Shown piece by piece: positions 10,362 to 32,215 of a stretch of DNA of 64,000 nucleotides. Position 1 is the first letter of the stretch, and every line of letters starts with the position of its first letter. Location of the stretch: positions 1-64,000 of the forward strand of contig CACZCK010000008.1 of the NCBI GenBank assembly GCA_902779675.1. Reading direction: 5' to 3'. The translations under genes were made by a program, and so were the position numbers. The stretch is from an uncultured Coriobacteriaceae bacterium (GTDB lineage Bacteria > Actinomycetota > Coriobacteriia > Coriobacteriales > Atopobiaceae). Below the pieces are notes generated by a model. The model saw only the letters and a list, made by a program, of their open reading frames with translations, ran no database searches and was not told the DNA's origin.

Positions 10362-10399
10362 GGCGGTTTGCGGCGGCTCCCGCGGGCGCGTCGATTGAG

Positions 10400-11835: not shown

Positions 11836-11874
11836 GCAACCAGGCTCCGCGCGGTACGACAGAACGGAAGAGCC

Positions 11875-12474: not shown

Positions 12475-12480
12475 GATGCT

Positions 12481-12511: not shown

Positions 12512-12517
12512 GCACTG

Positions 12518-12578: not shown

Positions 12579-12654
12579 GTTTTGTTCCATAACCCTATAC
12601 TGAACTCACCCGCGCCCGTACAGCAGGGCGAACCCTATCAGCTTGGAGGCACGC

Positions 12655-13116: not shown

Positions 13117-13139
13117 CCTGTCCGCGGCAGAACGACTTG

Positions 13140-13198
13140 TTCCAAAAGGGGTGGCCCCCATCGGCATGCGCTGCCGGTGGGGGCTACCGTCTTTGGAA
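13140..13198 (+). terminator. Stem-loop after purE, palindrome-family relative
   Basis: 27-base imperfect arms (13140-13166 and 13172-13198): TTCCAAAAGGGGTGGCCCCC... pairs with ...GGGGGCTACCGTCTTTGGAA. The core resembles the GGGG-TA-CCCC family. Placed 24 bases after the purE stop. Confidence 0.7.
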
Positions 13199-13302
13199 GA
13201 CGCTTGGCGACGTTTGCCCAAGAAGGCTCTAAGTTTTATGGTTATGACGCAAGCATGAAACTTCTTTCCGGACAGCTACGACCGGTACTGTCGAGGTGAC
13301 CC

Positions 13303-14112
13303 ATGGCACGCCATGCCAACACGGCTTCTGCTCGCTCGCGCACCCGTCGCCCGAGGCGCATCCTGAGTACCCTGCTGATCGTGGCGGGGTTGGTGCTGCT
13401 TGCCGTGGCTGGAGCCCTGTGGGGCAAGGACCAGTGGCGCTACCACAAGCAAGCCCAGATCAACCGCAAACTGGCCTCCTACGTCACGCTCTACGACGCG
13501 CCGAGCGATGCGCCAAAGCCGCCCGATGTGGACTGGGCGGGCCTCAAGACAATCAACGCCGACGTGGTGGCTTGGCTGCAGGTGCCGGGAACGGCCGTAA
13601 ACTATCCCGTCTACCAGGCCGAGGACAACGTGCGCTACCTGCGTGCGTCGGCAACGGGCGAGTATGCGGTTGGCGGTCAGCTGTTCTGCGACTATGCCTG
13701 CACGCGGCCCGGCATGGTCGACGCGCTCACGCTGGTCTACGGCCACCACATGCTTGACGGCAGCATGTTCAAGGCAATCGCCGAAATGGACCAGCAGGAG
13801 GCCTTCGACGCGGTGGACACCGTGTGGTACGTCACCGAGCAGACTCCCTGGGAGCTCGAGCCGCTGCTGCTGTACTACACCGTGCCCGACGACGAGGACG
13901 TGCGCAAGTTTACCTGGGAGAGCAACGATGAGTTCCGTGCGCACCTGCAGGAGCTGCTGGCCAAGGCGGTGACGAGCCGTCCCGACGCGGCGCAGGTCAT
14001 TGCGGGTGCCAAGCACGTGCTGGCGCTTATCACCTGCAATTATTACGACAGCTATGGTCGCACGGTGCTGCTGTGCGTGCCCAAGGCCGAGGCCGCCTCG
14101 GCGCTCTCGTAG
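13303..14112 (+). CDS. Class B sortase
   Basis: 269 residues. A basic N-terminus and one membrane segment (about 21-41) are followed by the sortase fold: QVPGTAVNYPVYQ, catalytic His in LVYGHHMLDGSMF, catalytic Cys in ALITCNYYDSYGR and the arginine of that same motif. The spacing and helix content fit class B rather than A or C. Class B enzymes usually anchor proteins with NPQTN-like signals or, in some gut bacteria, build pili. GAGGTGA precedes the ATG. No sorting-signal protein is adjacent; the next gene is a lipoprotein, so the substrate is unknown. It is the second class B catalytic domain in the window. Confidence 0.9.
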   Translation: MARHANTASARSRTRRPRRILSTLLIVAGLVLLAVAGALWGKDQWRYHKQAQINRKLASYVTLYDAPSDAPKPPDVDWAGLKTINADVVAWLQVPGTAVNYPVYQAEDNVRYLRASATGEYAVGGQLFCDYACTRPGMVDALTLVYGHHMLDGSMFKAIAEMDQQEAFDAVDTVWYVTEQTPWELEPLLLYYTVPDDEDVRKFTWESNDEFRAHLQELLAKAVTSRPDAAQVIAGAKHVLALITCNYYDSYGRTVLLCVPKAEAASALS

Positions 14113-14269
14113 CGCAGAAGGGCGCGAGAGGACGTTCCTCTTGGTTGGGGTTAGCCCGAGGGTTGGGCGTGTTCCGACTGTCCGCGAATTGCGTGCATGA
14201 GGTATAGCGGCGACCATCCTTGGATACGATATTCCTTGAACGGTGGCGTTCGAGATGAGGGGGAAGCCC

Positions 14270-15175
14270 ATGGCAGTCAGGAAAGTCCTACCTACAAGGT
14301 CGCTGGCACTGTTCGTTGTCCTGATACTCGGCGTTCTGGGCCTTGTCGGTTGCTCGCAAAGCAAGGCCGGAAACCAGAGCGTGGCGCAGGAGGCCCCCGT
14401 CTCTGACAGCAAGGCGTCCGACTCCACGACGGACGAGGGACCCGTGTGGGTGCTCGTCAAGGAGACGACCACCTACAAAGAGGACGAGTTCGAGACCTCG
14501 TATGTCGTGACCTACGAGCTGGACGAACATGGCAACACGATGAGCGCCACGCACGACAGTGGCGGCGGGGAGCCATACGTCACAACGTACGAGTTCGACG
14601 AAGATGGCTTTGTGACCAAGTACACCGAAACTGGCTACGAGACCGCGACGGTGACCAACACGCTCAAGAAGGACGATCAGGGCCGCGAAGTTAAGTGCAC
14701 CTCAGACGATGGGTCCACCATCGAGACCACCTACGGCGCCAACGGCCATGTCAAGAGCCGTGTGTTCTGCACTCCGACCAAGGCAGAGGACGAAGAAGGT
14801 AACATGGTCGATTCGGGGACCTATACCACGACGGTGAACTATGGCGAGGACGGCTTCGTGACCGATGGCGTCACAACCTCCACCGACCACGGCAGCGCGT
14901 CGTTTGGATACGCCTACACCAAGACCTACGAGCGCGACGCCGACGGCAAAGCCACGGGAATGACCACCACGACGTTCCAGATCGACGAGAACGGCAACCC
15001 CGTCGATGAGACCGCGACCACTACTACCAGCAAGCTTGAGTATGACGAGAACGGTAACCTGGTGCGCGTGACCGGGGAGGGCACGGGCCACGACGCCATC
15101 ACCGAGTACGAGTACGTGAAGGTCGAGGACCCGTCGCTCTACGTGCGGCTTGAGTCCCACCTCAAGTACCTGTAA
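14270..15175 (+). CDS. Lipoprotein with YD-like repeats
   Basis: 301 residues. Start chosen at ATG 14270 behind GAGGGGGAAG; in-frame GTG 14243 and ATG 14255 are weaker. The signal peptide ends in the lipobox LVGC, so it should be lipid-anchored outside the membrane. The mature protein has at least five degenerate units of the form TYEhDEdGhVTK or YDENGNLVRV, resembling YD/RHS-type repeats, rich in Thr, Asp and Glu. I do not recognise a named function. It may be a cell-surface binding or structural lipoprotein. It follows a class B sortase gene but has no sorting signal. Confidence 0.8.
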   Translation: MAVRKVLPTRSLALFVVLILGVLGLVGCSQSKAGNQSVAQEAPVSDSKASDSTTDEGPVWVLVKETTTYKEDEFETSYVVTYELDEHGNTMSATHDSGGGEPYVTTYEFDEDGFVTKYTETGYETATVTNTLKKDDQGREVKCTSDDGSTIETTYGANGHVKSRVFCTPTKAEDEEGNMVDSGTYTTTVNYGEDGFVTDGVTTSTDHGSASFGYAYTKTYERDADGKATGMTTTTFQIDENGNPVDETATTTTSKLEYDENGNLVRVTGEGTGHDAITEYEYVKVEDPSLYVRLESHLKYL

Positions 15176-15198
15176 GCGTCTGGAGCATCGACGGCTTC

Positions 15199-15232
15199 GA
15201 GGGGCGGCGGCCTGCATGGGCTGCCGCCCCTC
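15199..15232 (+). terminator. Hairpin after the lipoprotein gene
   Basis: GAGGGGCGGC...GCCGCCCCTC stem with a short loop, 23 bases past the stop codon, followed by TCTCGT. Likely intrinsic terminator with a poor T tract. Confidence 0.7.
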
Positions 15233-15368
15233 TCTCGTGCCGCGGGTCTGAGCCGTGCGCATAAGAGCCTGTTGGTCGTGTGGGCCTGCGCTGGCAACGC
15301 GGCCGCGCGCAATGCCAGCGTGTATGATTAGTGCCGCAAAGCTGCATGATTGCCACCGGGGAGGACCA

Positions 15369-16466
15369 ATGGCCAAAGACAAGAAGCACATCACCTATGC
15401 CGATGCGGGCGTGGACGTGGACGAGGGCGCCCGTGCGGTAGACGCCATCAAGGCGGCCGTGGCGGCCACCAACCGTCCCGAGGTCATCGGCGGCCTGGGC
15501 GGCTTCGGCTCGCTCTTCTCGGCGGCGGCGCTCAAGGACATGGAGGAGCCGGTGCTGGTCTCCGGCACCGACGGTGTGGGTACCAAGCTGGCCATTGCCC
15601 AGCTGCTTGACCAGCACGACACCGTGGGCGAGGATCTGGTCGCCATGTGCGTGGACGACATCGTGGTGGCTGGCGCCGAGCCGCTGTTCTTCTTGGACTA
15701 CATCGCTATTGGCAAGCTGCGTGCCGAGCATGTGGCGCAGATTGTGGAGGGCATTGCCAACGGCTGTGCCAAGAGTGGCTGCGCGCTGGTGGGCGGCGAG
15801 ATGGCCGAGCATCCTGGCGTGATGGCTCCCGACGACTACGACCTTGCCGGCTTTGTGGTGGGCGTGGCCGACCGTCCCAAGATGATCGGCGCGCATCTGG
15901 TGCGCGAGGGCGACGTGATTCTGGGCCTACCCAGTTCGGGTATCCATTCCAACGGCTACTCGCTGGTGCGCAAGGTGGCCATCGAGGGCAAGACTGTCGA
16001 GCAGCTGCGTGAGCCGCTCGATGAGCTGGGCGGCCAGAGCCTCGGCGACGCCGTGCTCGCTCCCACGACCATCTATGCGGGCAGCCTCATTCGTGCGCTC
16101 AAAGCTGGCGCACCGATTCATGCTATGGCGCACATCACTGGTGGCGGCATCACCGAGAACCTCAACCGCTGCCTGCCCGACAACATCGACGCAGTCGTGG
16201 ACCGCTGCGCCACCGACCCCATGAGCCCCGATGGCTTTGGCAATGGCCCTGCGTGGGATGTGCCGCCCGTCATCGGCTATATGGTGCGCGAGGCCGGCCT
16301 CACCCCCGACGAGGCGTACAAGACTTTCAATATGGGCGTGGGCATGAGCGTGCTGTGCGCACCCGAGGACGTGGACCGCGTGCGTGAGCTGCTCGACGCC
16401 GAGGGTTTTGACTCGTTCGTGATGGGCGAGTGCGTGGCCGGCGAGGGCAAGGTCACCTATCGCTAG
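15369..16466 (+). CDS. purM: Phosphoribosylformylglycinamidine cyclo-ligase (AIR synthetase)
   Basis: 365 residues. PurM closes the imidazole ring, turning FGAM and ATP into AIR. Recognisable segments: YADAGVDVDEGARAVDAIK at the N-terminus, GGLGGFGSLF, LVSGTDGVGTKL, MCVDDIVVAGAEPLFFLDY, GLPSSGIHSNGYSL and HITGGGITENL. The ATG follows GGGGAGGA; an open frame extends upstream to 15255 without a comparable start. purN follows after 33 bases, so the two are probably co-transcribed. Confidence 0.97.
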   Translation: MAKDKKHITYADAGVDVDEGARAVDAIKAAVAATNRPEVIGGLGGFGSLFSAAALKDMEEPVLVSGTDGVGTKLAIAQLLDQHDTVGEDLVAMCVDDIVVAGAEPLFFLDYIAIGKLRAEHVAQIVEGIANGCAKSGCALVGGEMAEHPGVMAPDDYDLAGFVVGVADRPKMIGAHLVREGDVILGLPSSGIHSNGYSLVRKVAIEGKTVEQLREPLDELGGQSLGDAVLAPTTIYAGSLIRALKAGAPIHAMAHITGGGITENLNRCLPDNIDAVVDRCATDPMSPDGFGNGPAWDVPPVIGYMVREAGLTPDEAYKTFNMGVGMSVLCAPEDVDRVRELLDAEGFDSFVMGECVAGEGKVTYR

Positions 16467-16499
16467 AAATCCGCGCGGCTGAGGAGAAGAGGGAGCATC

Positions 16500-17114
16500 A
16501 TGAGCATCAAGCTAGGCGTTCTTTTGTCTGGTAGCGGCACCAACCTGCAGGCCATTATCGATCGCATCGCCGAGGGCACCCTCGACGCCACTATCGAGCT
16601 GGTCATCAGCTCGCGCCCGAGCGCCTACGGCCTCAAGCGCGCCGAGGAGGCGGGCATCCAGACGATGACCCTCTCCAAGGAGATCTACGCCGATCCCATC
16701 ACGGCCGACGAGGTCATTGCCGCGATGCTCAAGAAGGCCGACGTAGACTACGTGATCATGGCTGGCTACATGCGCATGGTGCACGCGCCCATTCTGCAGG
16801 CGTTTCCCAACCGTGTGGTCAACCTGCATCCGGCGCTGCTGCCCAGCTTCAAGGGCGCGCACGCCATCCAGGACGCCTACGACTATGGCGTTAAGGTCAC
16901 GGGCGTGACGGTGCACTTTGCCGACGACAAGTACGACTGCGGCCCCATCATTGCCCAGCAGGCGCTGGCGGTGGAGGAGGGCTGGACGGTCGACGAGCTC
17001 GAGGCTCACATCCATGAGATCGAGCACGTGTTGTATCCCAACACGATCCAGCTGCTCGCGGAGGGCCGCGTAACGGTGCGCGACAACGGAACCGTGGCTA
17101 TTTCGGAGGCTTAG
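16500..17114 (+). CDS. purN: Phosphoribosylglycinamide formyltransferase
   Basis: 204 residues. PurN formylates GAR with 10-formyl-THF. Features: GVLLSGSGTNLQAIID at the N-terminus, the catalytic region RVVNLHPALLPSFKGAHA with its N-x-H pair, and GVTVHFADDKYDCGPIIAQQ with the conserved Asp. AGAGGGA lies ahead of the ATG. It is followed by a very long perfect inverted repeat. Confidence 0.97.
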   Translation: MSIKLGVLLSGSGTNLQAIIDRIAEGTLDATIELVISSRPSAYGLKRAEEAGIQTMTLSKEIYADPITADEVIAAMLKKADVDYVIMAGYMRMVHAPILQAFPNRVVNLHPALLPSFKGAHAIQDAYDYGVKVTGVTVHFADDKYDCGPIIAQQALAVEEGWTVDELEAHIHEIEHVLYPNTIQLLAEGRVTVRDNGTVAISEA

Positions 17115-21125: not shown

Positions 21126-22451
21126 ATGGCATCCACTCAGTCAGGCAGCCAGCTGCTCGCCTCGGGCCAGCGCATCAAGACGATGCTCGGCGAGACCGCG
21201 GTCGTCAAGTCGCTCATTGGCCAGGGTGGCCAGGGCTGGGTGTATGTGGTCTCCTATGCGGGCAAGGACATGGCCCTCAAGTGGTACCGCAAGAACGTGT
21301 TTGTCTCGCCATCCGAGTTCAAGGCCAACCTCAAGAGCAACATCATGGCTGGCCCTCCCGCGCCGCAGTTCATCTGGCCCCTCGACATGACCGTCGACCA
21401 GGACGACAGCTTTGGCTACATCATGGAGCTGCGTCCCAAGGGCTACTACGAGGCCACCGAGTTTCTGCTGCACAACGTGACCTTTGCCTCGTTCCGTCGC
21501 GCCGTGGACGCCTGCCTCAACGTGGTCTCGGCGTTCCGTCAGCTGCACAACGCCGGCTACAGCTACAAGGACATCAACGGCGGCAACTTCTTCTTTGACC
21601 CCAAGACGGGCAAGGCCCTGATCTGCGACAACGACAACGTGGCGCCCAGCAGCGTGCAGACCGGCATCATTGGCACGCCGCGCTTCATGGCGCCCGAGGT
21701 GGTCACGCGCCAGACCATGCCCAACGGCCACTCCGACCGCCACTCCATGAGCGTGCTGCTGTTCATGTTGCTGTGCATGGGGCATCCGCTGGAGGGCAGC
21801 CGTTCGCTGTGCCCGGTGCTCGGCGCCGCACAGCAGCTGGCCCTCTATGGCACCGACCCGGTGTTCATGATGGACCCCGACAACCACGTCAACGCCCCCA
21901 ACGAGATCATCCACCGCGACGTGGTGCGCGTGTGGGACTGCTTCCCGCAGTACATGCGCGACATCTTCGTGCGCGCGTTCTCGCACGATGCGCTCACCAA
22001 CCCGCAGACGCGCCCCACCGAGAAGGACTGGCTCAAGGCGCTGGTGCGCTTCCGCAGCGACATGATCACCTGCAGCTGCGGCAACGAGGTCTTTACCGAG
22101 GGCGGCGCGGGCGCGGTGTGCGACGCCTGCGGCAAGCCCGTGCGCTCCGCGTGCCGGCTGAAGCTCAAGGATCTCGAGTACTCTATCCCGCTGGTGTACG
22201 ACACGCGCCTGTATCGCGTGCAGGTGGGCGTCTGCAACGCCGACGAGGCGCTCGACCCCATCGCGCAGGTGGTGCGCTCGGGTGGCAGCAAGCCGGTCCT
22301 GGGCCTGCGCAACGCGTCCAAGCAGTCGTGGAACGCCATCACCTCAAAGGGCGAACGCCGTCCCGTGGCTCCCGGCGAGGTCATACCCATCAAGCCCGGC
22401 ATCCAGTTTACCGTCGAGACCGAGACCGCCCAGATCTTGAGCAACCAATAG
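21126..22451 (+). CDS. Ser/Thr kinase-like protein with zinc ribbon (TerY-P-type triad)
   Basis: 441 residues, first gene of a ten-gene block. The kinase domain has a glycine loop (IGQGGQGWVYVV, residues 31-42), Lys in MALKWY, a catalytic-loop-like YSYKDINGGNFFFD and CDNDN in place of DFG, then TGIIGTPRFMAPEV like an activation segment. HRD has become YKD and DFG has become DND. Next is a four-Cys zinc ribbon (Cys316, 318, 332, 335). The beta-rich C-terminus (about 345-441, GLRNASKQSW...VAPGEVIPIKPG) could be FHA-like, but only weakly. GGGAGG precedes the ATG. The next two genes encode a VWA protein and a PP2C phosphatase, the same trio as the TerY-P systems described by Aravind and co-workers. 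Confidence 0.85.
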   Translation: MASTQSGSQLLASGQRIKTMLGETAVVKSLIGQGGQGWVYVVSYAGKDMALKWYRKNVFVSPSEFKANLKSNIMAGPPAPQFIWPLDMTVDQDDSFGYIMELRPKGYYEATEFLLHNVTFASFRRAVDACLNVVSAFRQLHNAGYSYKDINGGNFFFDPKTGKALICDNDNVAPSSVQTGIIGTPRFMAPEVVTRQTMPNGHSDRHSMSVLLFMLLCMGHPLEGSRSLCPVLGAAQQLALYGTDPVFMMDPDNHVNAPNEIIHRDVVRVWDCFPQYMRDIFVRAFSHDALTNPQTRPTEKDWLKALVRFRSDMITCSCGNEVFTEGGAGAVCDACGKPVRSACRLKLKDLEYSIPLVYDTRLYRVQVGVCNADEALDPIAQVVRSGGSKPVLGLRNASKQSWNAITSKGERRPVAPGEVIPIKPGIQFTVETETAQILSNQ

Positions 22452-22460
22452 GAGGAGACC

Positions 22461-23237
22461 ATGCCTACCATCACCGAGTTGACGTCCGCCCCACGCCGTG
22501 CGCTGCCCATCTTCTACGTGCTCGACACGTCGGGCAGCATGTCGGGAGCGCCCATCGAGCGACTCAACCACGCCATGGAAGAGACGATCGACGCCCTCAA
22601 GCAGGTGGCGGCGCACAACGGCGACGCCCAGCTCAAGGTGGCCGTGCTCGAGTTCAACTCCACCGTCAGGTGGCTGCAGCCGGCTGGCCCCGAGGACATG
22701 GAGGACTTCATCTGGCAGGACCTCTCGGCCGGTGGCATGACGGCCATGGGCGCCGCCCTCACCGAGCTCGACAGCAAGCTCTCGCGCAACGGCTTCCTCA
22801 GCTCGGCCACTGGCTCGCTGTATCCGGTGATCATTTTCATGACCGACGGCATGGCCAACGACGACTACGAGGGTCCGCTCAAGACCATCCGCCAGAACAA
22901 GTTCTTCAAGCACGCCGTCAAGGTGGGCTTTGCCATTGGTGACAACGCCGACGCCGAGATGATCGCCAAGGCCGTGGGCGATAGCGAGGCCGTGATCAAG
23001 ACCGACGACCTGGCGCTCTTTGCCAGGCTGATGCGCTTTGTGTCGGTGACGTCGTCCACCATGGCGAGCGTCTCGCACACCGCCGAGACCGACATCAACG
23101 GCGCCTCGGTGGTGCAGGCGGTTATTGCCCAGGAGGAGATCGAGCAGGAGGCTATCGACCCGGGCGTGACGGTCACGATCATCGATGAGCCCGACGACAT
23201 CGACGGCGACGACCCCTGGAACTTCGAAGAGTGGTAA
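22461..23237 (+). CDS. TerY-like VWA-domain protein
   Basis: 258 residues, almost all one VWA domain. The metal-ion site is intact: LDTSGSMSGAP near residue 21, Thr in SAGGMTAMGAAL, Asp in IIFMTDGMAND. VWA proteins of this kind act as metal-dependent scaffolds and form a trio with kinases and PP2C phosphatases. AGGAGGAG lies between the kinase stop and the ATG. The last stop codon overlaps the phosphatase start (TAATG). The final 25 residues are strongly acidic. Confidence 0.9.
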   Translation: MPTITELTSAPRRALPIFYVLDTSGSMSGAPIERLNHAMEETIDALKQVAAHNGDAQLKVAVLEFNSTVRWLQPAGPEDMEDFIWQDLSAGGMTAMGAALTELDSKLSRNGFLSSATGSLYPVIIFMTDGMANDDYEGPLKTIRQNKFFKHAVKVGFAIGDNADAEMIAKAVGDSEAVIKTDDLALFARLMRFVSVTSSTMASVSHTAETDINGASVVQAVIAQEEIEQEAIDPGVTVTIIDEPDDIDGDDPWNFEEW

Positions 23238-24760
23238 TGGCAGCCGAGGCGACGACATCCATGAGCTCGCGCGGGATGGTGGCCCTGAGCCAGACGGTTC
23301 AGGGGTACAGCCACGTGACGCACGACAAGCCGTGCCAGGACGCGTCGTGCCACCTCGAGGCCGAGGATGGCAGCTGGCGTCTGGTGGTGGTGTCCGATGG
23401 CCATGGCGACCCGAGCTGTATGCGCAGCGACCGGGGTTCCAAGATGGCGGTCGAGGCTGCCGCGGGGTGCCTGCAAGCGTTTGCGGAGGCCTTCGACGAG
23501 CCCGATTCTGCCGGCCACACCTTGGCGAGCGACCTGCGGGTACCTGCTCGCCGCGCCGCGCTGGTGCGCCGGCTGACCGACGCCATCTTGGCGCGCTGGA
23601 CCGCGGCGGTGCACGCCGACCTGGCCGCCGACCCGCTCACCGAGGCCGAGCTGGCCCAGGCCAGTGACCGCGCCCGCGCGCTGTACCTGCGCGGCGAGCG
23701 ACTCGAGCACGTGTACGGTGCCACGCTGCTGTGCGCGCTCTGGCTGCCGCGCATGCTGGTGCTGCTGCAGCAGGGCGACGGCGTGTGCCTTGTGGCACGC
23801 ACCGACGGTGACCTGTGGGAGCCCGTGCCCGAGGACGAGCGCTGCCAGGCCAACGTGACCACGTCGCTGTGCGATACGGATGCCGCCGATTCCATTCGCC
23901 ATGCGCTGGTGGCCTTTGACCGCGACCCGTCGATGGCGGTGATCTTGGGCAGCGACGGCGTAGGCAACTCGTTTGCCGGCACCGCCAACCTGGAGGGCTA
24001 CGTGATGAGGCTGCTGGTTGACGTGGCCTCCGACGGCGACGCCACGCGCGTGGAGCTGGGCCTGGAGCCCGGCCTGGCGCGACTCAGCCAGACGGGCAGC
24101 GGTGACGACATGTCGCTGGCGCTCATCGCCGACGTCGATGCCGTGGCGCGGGTGGCCGATGGCTACGCTGCCGTGGTGCGTCTGCAGGAACTGCGCGCAC
24201 ACGCTGCGGCTCTGCAGGACAAAGTGGTCTCCATGGGTCGCAAGCACGCGATTCTGGCCCAGCGGCGCGACGCCGCGCTGGCCGACCGCGCACGCCTGGA
24301 GGACGACGTGCTCGACTGCCAGGTGCGCCTGGGCGATGCTCGGGTGGCCGTGGAGCAGTCGAAGGCTCACCTCGAGGAGCTCATGGCCCTCTGCGAGCAC
24401 GCAGAGCGAGCCACCGAGGCGGCGCGCGCCAAGCTCGAGGCAGCTCCCGAGGACCCGCGCACGCTGGTCATCGGTGGCATGGCGTTTGAGGTGCGCAATC
24501 CGGGCGAGCGCGAGGTGACACGCCGCATGCGCGAGCAGCGCAGGGCAATCTCGCGTTACGAGCAGGCCTACGCGCGCCACGAGAGCCTGCTCGCCTCGGT
24601 GCAGAGCCTCGCCGAGGAGCTGGTGCGCGCCAAGGCGACCCTCGACAGCTTTGACGATGCGGACCTGCGTGCCTTCGACCAATATGACGCACAGTTTCAA
24701 CAGCTGCAGGACGAGCTGCGCGAGGCCAAAGAAGAGCTGGCGCAGACGAGTACGATCTAG
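23237..24760 (+). CDS. PP2C-family protein phosphatase with coiled-coil tail
   Basis: 507 residues. The PP2C part (about 1-300) keeps the metal-binding motifs: KPCQDASC, VVVSDGHGDPS (DGH), VILGSDGVGNSF and SGDDMSLALI. It should remove phosphate from Ser/Thr, presumably opposing the kinase two genes upstream. From about residue 310 to the end is a long helical/coiled-coil region rich in Ala, Arg and Glu, uncommon in simple PP2C enzymes; it could bind the ATPase or coiled-coil partner. The ATG shares a base with the VWA stop codon, so translation is coupled. Confidence 0.88.
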   Translation: MAAEATTSMSSRGMVALSQTVQGYSHVTHDKPCQDASCHLEAEDGSWRLVVVSDGHGDPSCMRSDRGSKMAVEAAAGCLQAFAEAFDEPDSAGHTLASDLRVPARRAALVRRLTDAILARWTAAVHADLAADPLTEAELAQASDRARALYLRGERLEHVYGATLLCALWLPRMLVLLQQGDGVCLVARTDGDLWEPVPEDERCQANVTTSLCDTDAADSIRHALVAFDRDPSMAVILGSDGVGNSFAGTANLEGYVMRLLVDVASDGDATRVELGLEPGLARLSQTGSGDDMSLALIADVDAVARVADGYAAVVRLQELRAHAAALQDKVVSMGRKHAILAQRRDAALADRARLEDDVLDCQVRLGDARVAVEQSKAHLEELMALCEHAERATEAARAKLEAAPEDPRTLVIGGMAFEVRNPGEREVTRRMREQRRAISRYEQAYARHESLLASVQSLAEELVRAKATLDSFDDADLRAFDQYDAQFQQLQDELREAKEELAQTSTI

Positions 24761-24771
24761 GGGAGGCTGAC

Positions 24772-25818
24772 ATGGGTCTTCTGACCACCACGCTCAACAT
24801 CGAGGACCGCGTTACGCACATCGACGCACCCTGTTTCGTGCCGCTCAACGCCCTGTGCTCCAGCGTGGGCCAGGCGGGCAGGCGCTACCAGTTCGCACTC
24901 AACGCGTCGATCGAGGACGTCAAGGCGGAGCGCAAGCCCAACAAGGCAGTGCTCGTCAAGTGCTCGGGCTTCCCCGACATGTACCTGGTGCAGGTCAACA
25001 TGGGTGCCTTCTATCACTTTGACATCTACGTCAAGGGCTATGTGGCGCTTGGTGCCAATATCGTGCACAACATGGCTGCGATGAACGGCGGCCTGTTGGG
25101 TGGCCTGGTGGCCAACGCGCAGCGCAAGAAGATCGATGCAGCCAATGCCCGCGTGGGCGACTACCTCTCGCACATGGAGAACGACGTGCTGCCCTATGCC
25201 GTCGAGTTGGCGGTGCAGATGCCGGCGCAGGAGTCCCTGGACGACGTGCCGGTCATCGAGGCGGGCGGCACCGAGCGCAGGTTCAACCCCTCCGACGAGG
25301 AGCGCAGGCAGGCCGACGAGCGGGCGCGGCTCGAGCAGCAGCGCAAGGAGCAGGAGCGCCAGCAGCGCGAGCTCGAACGCCAGCAGCGCGAGCTGGAGCG
25401 CCAGCGACGTGACGAGGAGCAGCGCCGCCAGCGCGAGCAGGACCAGCGCGCCCGCGAGCAGGAGCGCCAGCTCAGGGAGCAGCAGGAGGCCGAGCGCAGG
25501 GCGCAGCAGGAGGCGGCACGCGCCGAGCAGGAGCGCAGGCGCCAGCAGGAGCAGGCCGCCCGCAGGGAGGAGCAGCTGCGCCAGCAGAAGAAGGTCATCG
25601 CCGAAAAGAAGGTGCAGTCCAAGCTGTTGATGCTCACGAGCGAGGAGGCTCGCACGGGGTGCGTCAAGGTCATCCAGACGGTGGACGGCCGCACGGTCAA
25701 GGTGAGCATCCCTGCGGGCGTGACCGACAACATCAAGCTCGACGTGCCCGAGCAGGGTTGGCTCGACGAGGCAACGGGCCTGCGCGGCAACCTGCGTCTG
25801 AACATCGCCATCATGTAG
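24772..25818 (+). CDS. Coiled-coil protein with C-terminal DnaJ-C-like module
   Basis: 348 residues. The N-terminal domain (1-165) is not recognised. A very regular Arg/Gln/Glu coiled coil covers about 175-285. The last 45 residues (RTVKVSIPAGVTDNIKLDVP...GLRGNLRLNI) resemble the substrate-binding C-terminal domain of DnaJ/Hsp40, with no J domain or zinc finger. GGGGAGG lies before the ATG, 11 bases after the phosphatase stop. It may be an assembly or chaperone-like component of the same system. A second DnaJ-C-like module occurs in the product at 30260. Confidence 0.7.
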   Translation: MGLLTTTLNIEDRVTHIDAPCFVPLNALCSSVGQAGRRYQFALNASIEDVKAERKPNKAVLVKCSGFPDMYLVQVNMGAFYHFDIYVKGYVALGANIVHNMAAMNGGLLGGLVANAQRKKIDAANARVGDYLSHMENDVLPYAVELAVQMPAQESLDDVPVIEAGGTERRFNPSDEERRQADERARLEQQRKEQERQQRELERQQRELERQRRDEEQRRQREQDQRAREQERQLREQQEAERRAQQEAARAEQERRRQQEQAARREEQLRQQKKVIAEKKVQSKLLMLTSEEARTGCVKVIQTVDGRTVKVSIPAGVTDNIKLDVPEQGWLDEATGLRGNLRLNIAIM

Positions 25819-25831
25819 CCCTGGCGGCACC

Positions 25832-26086
25832 ATGGACGACTTTGGCATCCTGTACGAGGACTGGAAGGACGAGCTGCGGCGCATGACGGCCGCTCTGCGC
25901 ACCGACGCGCTGGACGGCGACGTGCAGCGCCTGCGCATCAAGCGCGAGCTGGTGCTGACGCTGCAGCAGTGCAAGCAGGTCAAACAGGCCTCCGACGAGC
26001 TCGAAGCCTCCATGAGGCGCATCTACGACCTGATGGACGGGGGCCTTCCGGCCCGCATGGACAAGCGCAAGGGGCTGACGCGATGA
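25832..26086 (+). CDS. Small helical protein, unknown
   Basis: 84 residues, charged and helical (DDFGILYEDWKDELRRM, then KRELVLTLQQCKQVKQ), no signal peptide or membrane segment. The ATG has no strong ribosome site but the gene sits 13 bases after the previous stop, and its own stop overlaps the FtsK-like gene by the four bases ATGA. This tight coupling supports it as a real gene and a likely partner of the ATPase. Confidence 0.72.
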   Translation: MDDFGILYEDWKDELRRMTAALRTDALDGDVQRLRIKRELVLTLQQCKQVKQASDELEASMRRIYDLMDGGLPARMDKRKGLTR

Positions 26087-29000
26087 GTGCCGCACGTCTG
26101 AGCGTCACCGACGCGGTGGAGCGTTGCGTGACCCTGCTGGCAAAGGTTGACGAGCTGGCCAACGAGGCTGCGATGCTCGAGGACCGGCGCTACCAGGCGC
26201 AGCTGGAGGTGCGCAACCGCGACGACGCGGTGGTGGACCAGCTCGTGAGCGAGCTGCAGCAGCGCGAGGACGAGCTGCTGGCAACCCTCACCGAGGTGGA
26301 GCAGCAGACGACCGAGGCCATGGCGCTCGTGGAGAACCACGTGGCCCTGCTGGAGAGCAAGATCACCGGGTTCGGCGCTCGGGCGGCGTGCGAGCGATAC
26401 CGTCAGGAGGCCAGCCGCCGGGCAGCGGCCCATCCGCTCACGCCGGCGCGCGAGCCCTGGGACCTGGTGAACCAGTTCGTGGAGGTGGGCACGCAGATCG
26501 AGGTTGCGGCCTTGGCCAACGTTCCCGGTCGTGGTGTCGACGAGCACTTTACGGCAGCCTTTGCCAAGGCACAGCAACTGCGCGACCTCAAACGCAGGGT
26601 ACATGCGCATCTCGAGTCCTACTACAACCGCTGGTACGACACGGAGATGGCAAACGCCGAGGCACATGGCCGTCAGCGTGACCGCGCGCTGGGCAGCGCG
26701 GTGGTGCACGTCAACCAAGCGCACGAGGCCTGGTTGCGGCAGTGGCGCAGCGAGTGGCAGGCTCTTGGCGCCGCCGCGCCAGCCGAGCGCCACGCCAACG
26801 GCTGGCGTGCGCGGCAGCTGGAAGGCCGGCTGACCCTCGACCGTAAGGCCTACCAGGCGCTTGGCGGTGCGGGCGACAAGGCCGTGCTCTCCGCGTACGA
26901 CGGCGCCACGGTGCTGCTCAACGACAGCATGGTGATCTGCCAGGGGTCCGGCGACGCCACGGCATCTGTGCGTGCGCTGGAGGATCAGCTGTGGCTGAGC
27001 CTGCGCGAGGTGGCAGACGTCGAGCACAGGGTGTGCCTGTGTAGCGCTGGAGCCACGCTCGACTTTGCCATGCCCGTTATGCGCTTCGTCAAAGAGCAGC
27101 CGCAGGTCACCGGAGGAAGGGTCCTCACCGACTCTGCGACGGTCGCGACGGCGCTGAAGGAGCACCTCGCGGCAATGGACGACGCCCTCCAGGGCAAGCT
27201 GGTGGGGTATGGCTCGGTGGAGGAGTTCAACCGTCGCAATGGCGCCAAACCGCTGCCGTGGCGCGTGCTGTGCGTGGCGCACTTTCCGGCGGGCTTTGAC
27301 GATCGCATGACCGCTGAGCTGCTGCGCCTTGTGGCGCAGGGTCCGCGTGCGGGTATCCGCGTGCTGGTGCAGGCCGATGCCGAGGCGGCGGCTGCGGGTC
27401 GCGGCATGCGTGCGGACGACCTGGCGCGCCAGATGCGCAGCCTGCCGCAGGCCTTTGTGGTGGCTGGCAGCGGCCCGTGGCGCAGTGCGGTGAATGGCCT
27501 CGTGCAGCTCTCCTACAAGGCGCTTTCGCCCAAGCAGGTGAGCGAGCTCGTGGCCGCTATGGCGGCTGCGACCAAGCGGCGCAGCACCGCCTCGCTCGAC
27601 CTCGCGCAGATGCTGCCCAAGGAGCGCCTGCAGCGCTGCTCGGCGGCCAGTCGTGTTTCGCTACCGTTTGGTGTCAACGAGGACGGCCGCGTGCAGTGCC
27701 TGGAGCTGGGCGACGCCGTGGCACAGGGCTCGTCGCACTGTGCGCTGGTGGTGGGTCCTACGGGTTCGGGCAAATCGGTGCTGCTGCACGACCTCATTAC
27801 CAGCGCGCTGTTTTGCTACGGCCCCCAGGAGCTGCAGCTCTGCCTGCTCGACTTCAAGGAGGGCACCGAGTTTGCCCCCTACGCCAACGTGCGACTGCCG
27901 CACTTGCGCTACGTGGCGCTCGACTCTCTGCAGCAGTTTGGCGAGAGCGTGCTGGCCCAGCTGGTGGGCCTCATGCGCACGCGGGCCGAGAGCTTTAAGG
28001 CGGCCTCGGCTGGCGGTGCGCATATTGCCAACATTGCCGAGTACCGCGCGGCGGGGCACCGCATGCCGCGCATCCTGGTGGTGATGGACGAGTTCCAGGA
28101 GCTGTTTGACTGCGACCGCGACCGCAAGTGCGCCTACAGGGCCGCGGCCCACTTTGGCGAGCTGGTGAGCAAGGGCCGCGCGTTTGGCATCCACATGGTG
28201 CTGGCCACCCAGACGCTGCACCGTATCCACGAGGGCAACTACGCCATCGCCAAGGCATCGCTCGAGGAGCTGCACGTGCGCCTGGGCCTCAAGTGTTCGG
28301 AGCGCGAGTTTGCCAACCTCATGGGGCAGGCCAATGCGACGCTCTGTCGACAGAAGACCACCGACGCACGCGGCTCGGCCGTGTTCATGGAGGACTACGC
28401 CCACGGGCGGCCTGTGGGTGTGCGTGTGGCCTACCTCAAGCCCGAGCGCAGGACCAAGCTGCTGGAGCACCTGGCCTCTCGCTACAAGGGACGTGACTTC
28501 AAGCCGGCCTACGTGTTCCGCGGGACGCAGGAGGAGCGCGTGCCACTGGCGGCGCTCGCGAAGGCGTCGGCCGAGCACCAGCGAGTGTACGTGGGCAAGC
28601 CGGTGGCGCTGGGCAGGAACGTGGGGTTCGACGTGGCGCTGGGGACGCCGGCCAACCTGCTGGTGCTGGCCGAGGACCAGACCCTGCTGCACCGCGTGGG
28701 CAACACCGTGCTGGCACAGGTGGCGGCCAACGCCACCATGGCACGCCAGCTGTTCCTCTTTGACGCCGAGGCGCTGCGCGCCGCGGACGAGGGGGCGGGC
28801 GCCTTGCAGCGCCTGGCCGGCCGGGGCGTCAAGGTGCCGCGAGGGCTGGCATGCTCGGCAGCCAATGCCTTCAGGGTGCTGCCCACGCTGCGCGAGGCCT
28901 ATGACCTGTTCCAGCGCCGCAAGGAGGCTCTGGCCGCGGGGCGCGAGCTCGCGCATGCAAGCGACCCCGTCTACGTGGTGATCTTGGGTTACGAGCAGAT

Positions 29001-29448
29001 CGATCCGCTGGTGTGCCTGATGGAGGGTCGCAGCGTGGCCGACTACGACGTGACACCTGCGCCTGCCGTGCCTGCGCCTGACGCCGACCCGCTGCAGGCC
29101 ATGCTCGACGACCTGGCGGGAGATTTGGCCAACGATGCGCAGGCGTCTCCCGCCGCAAGCGTACCGCCGCGGCAGATGTTGCGTACGCTGCTGGAGAGCG
29201 GTCACCTGTGCAACTTCCACGTGGTGCTCACCTGCGGCAGCCCCGCGGCGCTCGACCGCCTGCTGCGCTCCGACCTTGCGCCGTTCAACCACCGGCTGGT
29301 GCTGCCGCGTTCCATGGGACGCACGGCGCTCGTGGACACCGACATCGACCTGCGGCACGTGCCCGATGGGTGCGTGCTGTACACCGATGGCCAGCGCGAG
29401 GCGTGGCTGGTCAAGCCCTTCGAGGTCGTGGAAGGGGGCAGCGGGTGA
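26083..29448 (+). CDS. FtsK/SpoIIIE-type tandem ATPase (EssC/EccC-like layout), cytoplasmic
   Basis: 1121 residues from ATG 26083. The N-terminal half has coiled-coil stretches (about 10-100) and no membrane segment. ATPase domain 1 is complete: Walker A GPTGSGKS at 558-565, CLLDFKEGTEF, Walker B ILVVMDEF with Asp669/Glu670, and GIHMVLATQTL. A second FtsK-like domain (about 845-1115) is degenerate: the P-loop position reads TPANLLVLAEDQ, without Gly-Lys-Ser/Thr. A working plus degenerate FtsK pair is the arrangement of type VII secretion ATPases, but those normally have membrane anchors. DNA or protein as substrate is open. Its stop overlaps the next gene's GTG. Confidence 0.85.
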   Translation: MSAARLSVTDAVERCVTLLAKVDELANEAAMLEDRRYQAQLEVRNRDDAVVDQLVSELQQREDELLATLTEVEQQTTEAMALVENHVALLESKITGFGARAACERYRQEASRRAAAHPLTPAREPWDLVNQFVEVGTQIEVAALANVPGRGVDEHFTAAFAKAQQLRDLKRRVHAHLESYYNRWYDTEMANAEAHGRQRDRALGSAVVHVNQAHEAWLRQWRSEWQALGAAAPAERHANGWRARQLEGRLTLDRKAYQALGGAGDKAVLSAYDGATVLLNDSMVICQGSGDATASVRALEDQLWLSLREVADVEHRVCLCSAGATLDFAMPVMRFVKEQPQVTGGRVLTDSATVATALKEHLAAMDDALQGKLVGYGSVEEFNRRNGAKPLPWRVLCVAHFPAGFDDRMTAELLRLVAQGPRAGIRVLVQADAEAAAAGRGMRADDLARQMRSLPQAFVVAGSGPWRSAVNGLVQLSYKALSPKQVSELVAAMAAATKRRSTASLDLAQMLPKERLQRCSAASRVSLPFGVNEDGRVQCLELGDAVAQGSSHCALVVGPTGSGKSVLLHDLITSALFCYGPQELQLCLLDFKEGTEFAPYANVRLPHLRYVALDSLQQFGESVLAQLVGLMRTRAESFKAASAGGAHIANIAEYRAAGHRMPRILVVMDEFQELFDCDRDRKCAYRAAAHFGELVSKGRAFGIHMVLATQTLHRIHEGNYAIAKASLEELHVRLGLKCSEREFANLMGQANATLCRQKTTDARGSAVFMEDYAHGRPVGVRVAYLKPERRTKLLEHLASRYKGRDFKPAYVFRGTQEERVPLAALAKASAEHQRVYVGKPVALGRNVGFDVALGTPANLLVLAEDQTLLHRVGNTVLAQVAANATMARQLFLFDAEALRAADEGAGALQRLAGRGVKVPRGLACSAANAFRVLPTLREAYDLFQRRKEALAAGRELAHASDPVYVVILGYEQIDPLVCLMEGRSVADYDVTPAPAVPAPDADPLQAMLDDLAGDLANDAQASPAASVPPRQMLRTLLESGHLCNFHVVLTCGSPAALDRLLRSDLAPFNHRLVLPRSMGRTALVDTDIDLRHVPDGCVLYTDGQREAWLVKPFEVVEGGSG

Positions 29449-29873
29449 GCGGTGGGGTGAACACCGATACGGCCTCGCTCGAGGAGGTGCTGCGCGCGGT
29501 TACGTCGTTCGCGCGGGAGACGGGCACGTTCTACCGTGGAACGGGCCTCGTGCTGGACCACTTTGAGGACGAGACGCGGCAGTATCGGCAGGGGCTCGCG
29601 GACCTGCTTGACGATCGTCCGGAGGGTGGTCAGAGCACTGGCGATGACGAGCTGGACCAGATGCTGTACGACTACGAGCGGCAAGACAGGCGAGAGCAGG
29701 CGGCCATCGAGGAGCGCATTGCGGAGCTCGACCGCCTGGTGGCCGACTACGCCGACCGCAAGGACAACCTCGCCAGTTGCCTCAAAGCGCTGGTGATGGG
29801 CGGGAACCTCGAGGACGAGGCCCGCGGCCTGCGGCATCTGCACGACATGCTGCAGGACTATCTGGAATCGTGA
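29445..29873 (+). CDS. Helical protein, 142 residues, unknown
   Basis: GTG start overlapping the ATPase stop, behind GAAGGGGG; GTG 29457 is an alternative. The protein is all-helical with heptad-like charged stretches (RQDRREQAAIEERIAELDRL), acidic overall, without signal peptide or membrane segment. It is of a size and place that fit an ATPase partner or a chaperone for the next gene. I do not recognise the family. Confidence 0.75.
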   Translation: MSGGVNTDTASLEEVLRAVTSFARETGTFYRGTGLVLDHFEDETRQYRQGLADLLDDRPEGGQSTGDDELDQMLYDYERQDRREQAAIEERIAELDRLVADYADRKDNLASCLKALVMGGNLEDEARGLRHLHDMLQDYLES

Positions 29874-29916
29874 GGCTGGCGCTCGCGTGGGGCGCCGCAA
29901 GAGGAGGGAAGCAAAG

Positions 29917-30189
29917 ATGGCAGGTGGCAGAAGTTCAGTCGACGCGATGGACAGCCTGATTCGTCAGCTGACCCAGCTGCAGCAGATCCAGCAGGACATG
30001 CAGCAGCGCGTGCGCCAGGCCTACGACAGCATCGGCAACGAGTGGAACGACCAGCAGTACGTGAACATGGGTGCCGAGATCGACGACATCGTGGCCGCGC
30101 TGAGTGCCTGCTACACGTCGCTGTCGGCGGGCACCACAAAGCTGCAGGTGCGCAAGCGCATGCTGGAGGACTACCTCAACTACCGCTAG
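29917..30189 (+). CDS. WXG100-like small helical protein
   Basis: 90 residues from ATG 29917 behind AGGAGGGA; an in-frame ATG at 29887 is further from a ribosome site. Two helices surround a central GNEWNDQQY, close in position to the WxG turn of WXG100/Esx proteins though the Gly is missing; it ends in LEDYLNYR. Following an EssC-like ATPase, it is a candidate secreted or structural helical-hairpin protein. This similarity is weak and by eye. Confidence 0.7.
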   Translation: MAGGRSSVDAMDSLIRQLTQLQQIQQDMQQRVRQAYDSIGNEWNDQQYVNMGAEIDDIVAALSACYTSLSAGTTKLQVRKRMLEDYLNYR

Positions 30190-30210
30190 GCTACGAGTAC
30201 GGGCTAGGTA

Positions 30211-30237
30211 GCTCAGAAGGGATACTCCCCTTTGAGT
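30211..30237. repeat. GGGG-TA-CCCC palindrome inside the ten-gene block
   Basis: GCTCAGAAGGGATA pairs with TCCCCTTTGAGTC in the 70-base gap between the WXG-like gene and the membrane-protein gene. It is nearly identical to the element at 52897-52930. It may reduce read-through into the last two genes. Confidence 0.75.
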
Positions 30238-30259
30238 CACGTACGGATGAGGAGAGGGC

Positions 30260-31210
30260 ATGGGGGACACGGCTGCACAGGACGCGCTGCGCGACGCGAC
30301 GGTCGAGGCGCTGCGTGCGGGAGGCATGGACCTGCTTGACAGGCCCAAGGCTTTCTTTGGCACGCTTGCCGACCTGACGCCAACCAACACGCCGTTGATG
30401 CGGGTGCTGTCCAACGTGCTCTCCAAGGCGGGAGACGAGGCGTGCGGCCGCGAGTTGTCCAAGCTCACGGCAACGAGCTCGACGCGCGACGTGGAAGCCG
30501 CCGCCAGCCGGATTGCGCATCATCTCGTGGAGCAGTATGTAGTTGAGCGTAACGTGGCCGACGACTGCGCACGCGCGCTGGCCGAGGGCGTCGCGCAGGT
30601 GCTGGGCGTCTCGGTGACGACGGCTCCCGAGGGCTTCGACATCCCTGCGTATCACCGCAACGTGTCGGTTGAGGAGAGCGTGCTCCGTGCTGGCGGCTCG
30701 GTGATGGCGTACGTCAAGCCCAAGGGCTACGACCCTAGCGAAGGCCCGTACGACATCGCGTCGCTGCCGTATGCTCGCGTGAACGTGCCCGTGAGGGCGG
30801 GCACCGCGAAGGGCACCGTGGTGAGCGTGCCGGGGGAGGGCTACTACGCGCCAGATGGCCGTCGCGGCGAGCTGCGGGTGCGCCTGCGCGAGAAGAAGCC
30901 CGACGACGCCGCGCGCAAGGCGGAGGAGGCCCGCAGGGCAGAGGCCGAGCGCCGCGCCGAGGAGGCTGCGCGCAGGGCGGAGGAAGCCGCGCGCGCGGCT
31001 CAAACCCAGTCAGGAATCAAGGCTCCCGGGCAACAGAGCGGCTGCCTCGGCATGGTGGCCAGTGCGCTTGCGCTCTTGGTCGTCGTGGGGTTGGGTCAGT
31101 TCGTTCTGGTCTTTGCCATCGAGGCGGGCGTGTTTCCCTATGTGCTGGCCGTGGCAGTCGTTGTGGGCATCATCGCAGCCATCAAGTCGAAGGTGAACGG
31201 ATCGTCCTAG
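30260..31210 (+). CDS. Membrane protein with DnaJ-C-like module
   Basis: 316 residues. Residues 8-118 (EALRAGGMDLLDRPKAFFG... to LAEGVAQVLGV) match the N-terminus of the next gene's product. Residues about 173-211 (VNVPVRAGTAKGTVVSVPGE...GRRGELRVRL) resemble the DnaJ C-terminal domain. A charged Ala/Glu/Arg helix (about 213-255) leads to two membrane segments at 272-305. GAGGAGAGGGC precedes the ATG. The likely topology places most of the protein in the cytoplasm, so it could tether the kinase/ATPase machinery to the membrane; that is inference. Confidence 0.75.
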   Translation: MGDTAAQDALRDATVEALRAGGMDLLDRPKAFFGTLADLTPTNTPLMRVLSNVLSKAGDEACGRELSKLTATSSTRDVEAAASRIAHHLVEQYVVERNVADDCARALAEGVAQVLGVSVTTAPEGFDIPAYHRNVSVEESVLRAGGSVMAYVKPKGYDPSEGPYDIASLPYARVNVPVRAGTAKGTVVSVPGEGYYAPDGRRGELRVRLREKKPDDAARKAEEARRAEAERRAEEAARRAEEAARAAQTQSGIKAPGQQSGCLGMVASALALLVVVGLGQFVLVFAIEAGVFPYVLAVAVVVGIIAAIKSKVNGSS

Positions 31211-31288
31211 GGCAACGGGGCTTAGCCAACAGCATGACGTAGTACACTGGCAGGCGTTGGCGCTGGTCAGGGCAACTAGGGGGAGGGC

Positions 31289-32215
31289 ATGGCGCAGGAG
31301 AGCTCGGCAAAGGCACTGGCAGATGCGGTGTGCGAGGCGCTCAAGTTTGGCGGACTCGACGCTCTGGGCAACCCTCAGGGGCTTTACAGCATGCTCACCG
31401 ACCTTGCCGACCAAACGAGCCCCGAGATGCGCGCGCTGCGCGGCGTGCTGCAGGAGAGTCAGGACAAGCGGTTTCTCGAGCCGCTGGCTGGTCTGAACGG
31501 ATCTTCGAGCGCTCGCGACGTGGAGGTCGCTCGGCTGCGCATGATGCACTGGATGACGGACGAGCGCCTGCTGGCGGAGGGTGTTTCGGCCTCGTGCGCG
31601 CAGGGCTTGGCCGAGGGTGTGGCACGCTATCTGGGCATCAAGCTGCCCGTGGCGGAGCCTGCGTCGAAGGCCCAGCCGACTCCGAAGGCCCAGCCGACTC
31701 CGAAGGCCGAGCCTGCAAAGAAGACCGAGCCTGCAAAGAAGGCCGAGCCGTCCCCAAAGGCGGCACCGACTCCTACGCCGAAGCCTCAGTCCCAGCCGAC
31801 GCCCGCGTCCACGCCTAAGTCGTCGCCTGCTGCCGGCAAGAAGGGCATAAGCGAGAATGCGGCCCATGCCGTGGCCGCCCTTATGTTCCTCGGTTGGTTC
31901 GTGGCCATCCTCTGGGCCGACGGACACGGCGTGCTCGATGGCTTTGACGCGCGAGGTATTCCCCGATGGATCCCAGCGCTCGGTCTGATACTCGTCGAGG
32001 TGGGCCTGCTGTATCTCATAGACGGCAGTCACCAGGCGGCTGGCTGCCTGGCTGGGTCCTTTGGCGTGCTACTCGTGTGGACGCTCATAGCGGTCGCCTG
32101 TTTCGGGCTGTTCGAGCGCATGGGCTGGAGCATGACGCTCGCGGTCCCCGTGGGTGTGTTCGTGGCTCCTCTCGCCCTCGTCTTTCTCGTCGCGGCCATC
32201 CTTCCCAAAAAGTAG
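31289..32215 (+). CDS. Membrane protein, paralogue of the preceding N-terminal domain
   Basis: 308 residues. The first 115 residues repeat the domain of the previous protein (EALKFGGLDALGNPQGLYS..., LAEGVARYLGI). A Pro/Lys/Ala/Thr linker with short repeats (KAQPTPKAQPTPKAEPAKK) spans about 128-188. At least four membrane segments follow (about 195-305), ending ILPKK. GGGGGAGGGC precedes the ATG. It is the last gene of the block. I do not recognise the membrane region. Confidence 0.75.
   Translation: MAQESSAKALADAVCEALKFGGLDALGNPQGLYSMLTDLADQTSPEMRALRGVLQESQDKRFLEPLAGLNGSSSARDVEVARLRMMHWMTDERLLAEGVSASCAQGLAEGVARYLGIKLPVAEPASKAQPTPKAQPTPKAEPAKKTEPAKKAEPSPKAAPTPTPKPQSQPTPASTPKSSPAAGKKGISENAAHAVAALMFLGWFVAILWADGHGVLDGFDARGIPRWIPALGLILVEVGLLYLIDGSHQAAGCLAGSFGVLLVWTLIAVACFGLFERMGWSMTLAVPVGVFVAPLALVFLVAAILPKK

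What the first reader, a model, noticed from the sequence alone, without database searches (positions are those of the whole stretch)
21126..32215. Ten-gene kinase-VWA-PP2C-FtsK block: likely a phosphorylation-controlled ATPase system
A kinase-like protein with zinc ribbon, TerY-like VWA protein and PP2C phosphatase (the TerY-P trio known from Aravind-type analyses) are immediately followed by a DnaJ-C-like coiled-coil protein, a tandem FtsK-type ATPase, three small helical proteins and two membrane proteins. Overlaps (TAATG, ATGA, GTGA) and near-zero spacing show tight coupling. No TerD gene or toxin is present. Inference: a regulated translocation, secretion or conflict machine that I cannot name.
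Basis: partly seen in the sequence, partly recalled or inferred. Interest (0 to 1): 0.88.

Follow-up and report, generated by a model that had tools for sequence, protein, structure and literature searches.

The report
Kinase-switched type VII-like translocase cassette
A gut-bacterium genome carries an inserted ten-gene cassette that joins a soluble cousin of the type VII secretion motor and its small WXG100-like partner to a kinase, a phosphatase and a sensor-like protein; in most of the motor's close relatives that switch is replaced by a ubiquitin-like tagging module, and relatives of the small partner are fused to toxins.

Summary
In detail: ten genes, 21126-32215, one strand, with the TAATG, ATGA and GTGA overlaps as described. 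It is a discrete insertion: nine of fourteen examined same-genus genomes have the two flanking genes side by side.

The 'tandem FtsK' protein has the three-ATPase layout of EccC/EssC, but only the middle domain is catalytic and a coiled coil replaces the membrane/FHA part. The third small protein is a WXG100-family hairpin (W-x-D variant). This soluble WXG/FtsK module, and its link to TerY-P kinase-VWA-PP2C triads, is already in the literature.

New here: (1) kinase-VWA-PP2C-DnaJ_C-ATPase-WXG order is conserved in a Lachnospiraceae genome of another phylum, across one assembly gap. (2) The ATPase's nearest relatives carry E1-E2-JAB ubiquitin-like ligation genes instead of the triad, and kinase-linked ATPases fall in two distant clades (single clade rejected, AU p=0.0013). 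(3) In those relatives the WXG-like domain is fused to ADP-ribosyltransferase, papain-like and peptidase-like domains.

Best reading: a phosphorylation-gated protein translocase used in conflict. The cargo is unknown; no toxin or TerD is present. New variant of a known kind.

The parts
21126..22451 (+). Ser/Thr protein kinase (TerY-P type), soluble, with C-terminal CxC...CxxC zinc ribbon and a beta-rich tail; catalytic K52, D149, D168 present (YKD and DND in place of HRD and DFG)
   Evidence: Pfam Pkinase 9.7e-16; K52, D149, D168 invariant in an alignment of seven TerY-P kinases; 46% identical homologue in the L046 genome
22461..23237 (+). TerY-like VWA protein, intact MIDAS (DTSGS...T...D)
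   Evidence: Pfam VWA 9.5e-11; motifs; matches the VWA of TerD loci at about 1e-51; 55% identical in L160
23237..24760 (+). PP2C phosphatase with long C-terminal coiled coil; metal-binding motifs intact
   Evidence: Pfam PP2C_2 3.6e-27; motifs; 38% identical in L160
24772..25818 (+). Gene 4: N-terminal domain of unknown family, charged coiled coil, DnaJ_C-like C-terminal domain (possible client-binding part)
   Evidence: DnaJ_C 1.6e-4, sub-threshold; N- and C-terminal halves of a homologue at the facing ends of contigs L160 and L046 (scores 88 and 69 against shuffle maxima 48 and 39)
25832..26086 (+). S1, 84-aa helical protein directly upstream of the ATPase; positional counterpart of a second small WXG-like protein in relatives
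   Evidence: no convincing family hit; position shared with L046 and L035, but sequence similarity to the L046 protein not significant
26083..29448 (+). EccC/EssC-like FtsK ATPase: coiled coil (about 1-230), inactive D1, active D2 (Walker A GPTGSGKS 558-565, Walker B around 665-670), inactive D3; no membrane segment
   Evidence: NCBIfam EccCa 5.3e-30; AF2 pLDDT 79.5, pTM 0.71; Foldseek best hit EccC 4nh0, E 1.2e-26 over 997 columns; one Walker A in all 64 relatives
29445..29873 (+). S2, helical/coiled-coil protein of 142 aa (GTG start), not conserved in L046
   Evidence: no convincing family hit; in L046 the S3 gene follows the ATPase directly
29917..30189 (+). S3, 90-aa WXG100-family hairpin with W-x-D instead of W-x-G; likely substrate or activator of the ATPase (an upstream GTG at 29887 is an alternative start)
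   Evidence: family profile A3: best PDB hits HP0062 (3fx7 6.8e-7, 2gts 9e-6), with EsxA further down at about 0.007; Pfam WXG100 matched by 13 of 21 members; W43 and D45 invariant
30260..31210 (+). M1: helical adaptor domain (1-122), weak DnaJ_C-like stretch, coiled coil, about 2 membrane segments
   Evidence: adaptor domain paralogous to M2 (score 216 against shuffle maximum 47) and widespread in the order
31289..32215 (+). M2: same helical adaptor domain, Pro/Lys-rich linker, about 4 membrane segments

Best explanation
The block is a self-contained, horizontally inserted cassette coding for a soluble, phosphorylation-gated type VII secretion-like translocase. Shown: the motor is an EccC/EssC-family ATPase with one working and two dead ATPase domains; its partner S3 is a WXG100-family hairpin; a TerY-P kinase/VWA/PP2C triad and a DnaJ_C-containing coiled-coil protein sit in the same conserved gene order in another phylum. 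Inferred: S3 (with S1/S2) binds the ATPase and promotes its assembly or activity, as EsxB does for EccC (my own knowledge). The kinase and phosphatase reversibly modify the coiled-coil parts of the motor or gene 4, with the VWA protein as scaffold or sensor, so translocation runs only after a trigger. Gene 4 holds the unfolded client, and M1/M2 anchor the complex to the membrane. In relatives the likely cargo is a set of toxins carrying the S3-type domain; here the cargo is unknown and may be S3 itself or a protein without a recognisable leader.
For: Motor identity. S3 as WXG100. Conserved order in Lachnospiraceae. Insertion. Toxin fusions to the S3-type domain in relatives: ADPrib_exo_Tox 7.4e-27, Gln_amidase 1.8e-12 with a weak WXG100 match at the N-terminus, Peptidase_C39_2 1.7e-6. 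Kinase/VWA/PP2C linked to two distant clades of the same ATPase family. Intact catalytic residues of kinase, phosphatase and VWA. Published precedents: PMC11090510, PMC4978471, PMC3482391 footnote 6, PMC11217815.
Against: No toxin, no pore protein and no YukD-like protein was recognised in the block; no other S3-type or clear WXG100 protein is in the genome. The motor has no membrane segment and M1/M2 are not conserved in L046, so membrane docking is unproven. S1 and S2 have no detectable family. Nothing shows that the ATPase or gene 4 is phosphorylated. The L160-L046 adjacency rests on a contig break. Most relatives are metagenome assemblies.
Confidence: 0.55

Rival explanations
1. An intracellular anti-phage or stress-response system: the triad senses infection and the ATPase acts inside the cell (on nucleic acid or on an effector) rather than exporting protein.
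For: TerY-P triads accompany restriction-type systems and OB-fold versions are antiphage by themselves; EssC-like/WXG modules sit inside CoCoNuT operons (PMC11090510). TerD-linked triads in Lachnospiraceae. Cassette-like insertion.
Against: No nuclease, CARF, McrBC or other effector recognised in the block; the ATPase family is partnered by WXG100-like proteins, and relatives fuse that domain to toxins.
Confidence: 0.25
2. A proteostasis machine: DnaJ_C-containing proteins feed clients to an unfolding ATPase, switched by phosphorylation, with no export.
For: DnaJ_C-like domain in gene 4 and weakly in M1; another FtsK relative lies beside DnaK-like and DnaJ-like genes (L043).
Against: No protease or Hsp70 in the block; the DnaJ_C match is sub-threshold; the WXG100-like partner points to type VII function.
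Confidence: 0.1
3. A DNA translocase (segregation or conjugation) that happens to sit beside signalling genes.
For: FtsK_SpoIIIE fold; Foldseek also finds FtsK and TcpA.
Against: Best matches are EccC/EssC over the whole three-domain chain; no relaxase or mating-pair gene recognised in the block; WXG100-like partner.
Confidence: 0.05
4. Two unrelated cassettes (TerY-P triad; ATPase set) that are neighbours by chance.
For: Triads and ATPases each occur with other partners; M1/M2 are not conserved with the rest.
Against: Same order in another phylum at 33-55% identity; translational overlaps; a second, distant clade of the same ATPase family has also paired with a triad.
Confidence: 0.05

Closest known systems
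Soluble WXG100/FtsK 'mobile T7SS' and the EssC-like extension of type III-A CoCoNuTs (PMC3482391 footnote 6; PMC11090510; H. pylori TerY-P island, PMC4978471)
   Same: Three ATPase domains with only the middle active, N-terminal coiled coil, no membrane part, WXG100 partner, TerY-P genes alongside; the S3 family's nearest solved relative is H. pylori HP0062
   Different: No McrBC/helicase/nuclease genes recognised, single VWA, plus a DnaJ_C-type protein, adaptor-domain membrane proteins and a W-x-D hairpin; the ATPase groups with the ubiquitin-like-ligation clade
T7SSc (and T7SSd of Olsenella) of Garrett et al. 2024 (PMC11217815)
   Same: EccC/EssC-type ATPase, WXG100 protein, kinase; T7SSc also has vWA and PPM phosphatase
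   Different: Here kinase and ATPase are soluble, no YukD-like TsxB or EspG-like TscG recognised, ATPase has a coiled coil instead of FHA/TM and one Walker A
TerY-P triad / Ter stress systems (Anantharaman et al. 2012, known to me here via PMC11090510 and PMC4978471)
   Same: Kinase with zinc ribbon, TerY-like VWA, PP2C in one operon
   Different: No TerD in the genome and no Ter-type biosynthetic genes in the block, both of which accompany Lachnospiraceae triads
E1-E2-JAB + FtsK + WXG-like toxin loci (found here; no paper located in the held library)
   Same: Closest ATPase and S3 relatives, same order ATPase-S3
   Different: Ubiquitin-like ligation genes, often with rSAM or SEL1 genes and toxin-fused WXG-like proteins, in place of the kinase triad

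Membership tests
Type VII secretion-like ATPase (EccC/EssC family) | Three tandem FtsK-fold ATPase domains resembling EccC/EssC | tested here: met
   AF2 model and Foldseek to EccC 4nh0 over 997 columns, EssC 4lya; EccCa profile 5.3e-30
Canonical type VII secretion system (T7SSa-j) | Membrane-bound ATPase | tested here: not met
   No hydrophobic segment in the 1121-aa protein; coiled coil at the N-terminus
Canonical type VII secretion system (T7SSa-j) | WXG100-family small protein | tested here: met
   S3 family profile to HP0062 and, weakly, EsxA; 13 of 21 members match Pfam WXG100. The window protein alone is below threshold and has W-x-D
Canonical type VII secretion system (T7SSa-j) | YukD/EsaB ubiquitin-like protein (absent in T7SSd) | tested here: not met
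   No Pfam or NCBIfam hit among the ten proteins; a highly diverged fold relative was not excluded
Canonical type VII secretion system (T7SSa-j) | ATPase-dependent export of substrates | not testable with these tools
   needs a secretion assay
TerY-P triad | Kinase with zinc ribbon + TerY-like VWA + PP2C in one operon | tested here: met
   homologous triads lie in TerD loci
TerD / tellurite-resistance locus | TerD-family protein | tested here: not met
   PF02342 absent from the whole genome
Type III-A CoCoNuT | McrB-type GTPase, McrC homologue and CnuHE helicase/nuclease | tested here: not met
   none among the ten proteins
Soluble WXG100/FtsK 'mobile T7SS' | Coiled-coil FtsK with only the middle domain active, plus WXG100 | tested here: met
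Polymorphic toxin system | Variable toxin domain behind a shared leader | tested here: not met
   no S3-fused protein in this genome; present in relatives

The most novel reading that the evidence does not exclude
A class of soluble type VII-like translocases whose gate is a plug-in reversible protein-modification module: the same ATPase/WXG core is run by ubiquitin-like tagging (E1-E2 with JAB to remove it) in most lineages and by phosphorylation (kinase with PP2C to remove it) in this one, kinase pairing having happened more than once.
Probability: 0.35. Interest if true: 0.82.

Novelty: new variant of a known kind. Interest (0 to 1): 0.62.

Why it matters
Soluble type VII-like ATPases with WXG100 partners are widespread and, as far as I could find in the held literature, untested. 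This block gives a compact, complete and recently inserted example with a phosphorylation switch, and its relatives show the same core run by a ubiquitin-like switch and linked to toxins. That turns two open questions into direct tests: whether these soluble motors move protein at all, and what TerY-P triads control.

Tried and rejected
AF2 with a 5-sequence alignment gave a useless model (pLDDT 47.5); repeated with 64 sequences. Greedy ORF picking failed in a high-GC locus (L038) and was replaced by all-ORF searches. Looked for S3-fused toxins or other WXG100 proteins in the own genome: none convincing. Viral contigs: one hit only, of the E1-E2-JAB type. S1 and S2 gave no family; the S1 match to L046 was not significant. 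M1/M2 were considered as core parts: their adaptor domain is a common domain of the order and they are absent from L046, so they are kept as accessory. The AU test on 64 rows did not finish; done on 26 rows: one clade of kinase-linked ATPases rejected (p 0.0013), but a ubiquitin-linked clade excluding the window is not rejected (p 0.08), so the direction of the module swap is not proven. An FHA-like reading of the kinase tail was not tested.

Full report
Observation. Profile searches confirm kinase, VWA, PP2C and FtsK, and give gene 4 only a weak DnaJ_C match. NCBIfam names the ATPase's best relative as the type VII protein EccCa, 5.3e-30. Whole-genome searches find no TerD, no second ATPase matching it at E 1e-10 and no other convincing S3-type protein.

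Insertion. The closest FusA2 (EF-G-like) homologues in the genus were fetched with their upstream DNA. In nine of fourteen genomes the TrmA/RlmD-like methyltransferase gene and fusA2 lie head to head: in L144, for example, 144 bp separate the matched parts, against about 11.5 kb in the window (flank alignment). In the other five the methyltransferase was not within the fetched stretch. No tRNA was found in the window, and nothing among the ten proteins matches an integrase. In 399 genomes of the order the only strong relatives of the ATPase (E below 1e-60) are five loci of a different type.

The motor. A 64-sequence alignment gave an AF2 model of pLDDT 79.5 and pTM 0.71: a coiled coil to about residue 230, then three ATPase-fold domains. 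Foldseek's best hit is Thermomonospora EccC (4nh0, E 1.2e-26, 997 columns), followed by EssC and EccC fragments. All 64 proteins have exactly one Walker A; in the window it lies in the middle domain. This is the architecture described as a mobile or soluble T7SS ATPase (PMC3482391; PMC11090510). Hydropathy gives no membrane segment in the window protein.

The small partner. S3's family (A3, 21 members) has an invariant W-x-D where WXG100 proteins have W-x-G. The profile's best solved relatives are H. pylori HP0062 and, weakly, EsxA; chance coiled-coil matches lie between them. HP0062 is named in PMC4978471, with the FtsK HP0066, as a paralogue of the TerY-P-associated WxG/FtsK pair. Thirteen of 21 members match Pfam WXG100. 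The window protein alone does not reach threshold, so its membership rests on the family.

Conserved order. The nearest ATPase (L046, a Lachnospiraceae MAG, 33% identical) is preceded by a small protein and by the C-terminal end of a gene-4-like DnaJ_C protein at the contig edge, and followed by S3. The same genome carries a 46% identical kinase on a 6-kb contig that reads kinase-VWA-PP2C-N-terminal part of gene 4 and then ends. Both halves of gene 4 score above shuffles (88 against at most 48; 69 against at most 39). The simplest reading is one locus broken inside gene 4. S2, M1 and M2 are not there; a transglutaminase-like gene follows S3, resembling by eye one seen beside Lachnospiraceae TerY-P triads.

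Module exchange. Of 80 named loci plus those from the order, most Bacillota and Coriobacteriia relatives of this ATPase have E2-, JAB- and E1-like genes upstream (Prok-JAB 9.4e-8, ThiF 4.8e-27 in L035; map; the E2 label is by appearance, since Pfam gave no hit). Kinase-VWA-PP2C genes occur near two distant groups: window/L046, and L108/L109/L125, of which L108 and L125 also hold Ter-type genes by inspection. Trees place window+L046 together (100/100) within a larger set whose other members are E1-E2-JAB-linked (98/96). The data reject a single kinase-linked clade (p 0.0013), but do not reject the E1-E2-JAB set as a clade of its own (p 0.08). So repeated pairing with a triad is supported; replacement of a ubiquitin-like module by the triad is likely but not proven.

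Toxins in relatives. In several E1-E2-JAB loci an S3-type domain is the N-terminus of a protein with a variable C-terminus: ADP-ribosyltransferase (L051), papain-fold glutamine deamidase (L076), C39-like peptidase (L074), HExxH-containing (L059). L125, of the kinase type, has a coiled-coil protein with the same deamidase toxin domain. This is the main reason for preferring protein translocation in conflict. It does not show that the window's system moves a toxin.

Regulatory module. Catalytic residues of the kinase, the MIDAS of the VWA protein and the metal motifs of PP2C are intact. Homologous triads without the ATPase lie next to TerD-like genes in Lachnospiraceae, so the triad is a portable module.

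Membrane proteins. M1 and M2 share a 122-residue helical domain. It is scattered and expanded in related genomes in front of membrane proteins, zinc ribbons and, by inspection, a TIR-like and an Hsp70-like protein. Their role as anchors is inference.

Judgement. Shown: cassette, motor identity, WXG100 family of S3, intact triad, conserved order (with one assembly gap). Inferred: phosphorylation control of the motor, client holding by gene 4, membrane docking, export. It is filed as a new variant of the soluble WXG/FtsK module with a TerY-P switch, not as a canonical type VII system.

Noticed in passing
L034, L035, L036, L038, L047-L051, L054, L059, L061, L065-L067, L069-L072, L074, L076: E1-like ThiF, Prok-JAB and an E2-like protein sit beside a soluble EccC-like ATPase and WXG-like proteins, several fused to toxin domains; no paper on this combination was located in the held library.
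   Followed up: partly
L126 (IMG/VR contig, 4243-16775): A contig catalogued as viral carries the whole E1-E2-JAB/ATPase/S3/SEL1/rSAM set; prophage, mobile element or misclassification not resolved.
   Followed up: no
window 30260-30625 and 31289-31654; loci L171-L189: A 110-120-residue helical adaptor domain unmatched in Pfam for M1 and M2, with up to 11 matches per genome in relatives, in front of membrane proteins, zinc ribbons and TIR-like or Hsp70-like parts.
   Followed up: partly
window 589-6704: Large VWA/SpaA-domain surface protein followed by a pilin-backbone-like SpaA protein: looks like a sortase-type pilus locus.
   Followed up: no
L042 and L044: Other FtsK relatives in the order lie in operons with rSAM-like and kinase-like genes, a different arrangement from both types described here.
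   Followed up: no
L125 7104-8207 and L108 6690-7892: Two coiled-coil proteins look alike at the N-terminus but differ at the C-terminus (glutamine-deamidase toxin in L125), inside kinase-type ATPase loci: possible polymorphic cargo.
   Followed up: partly
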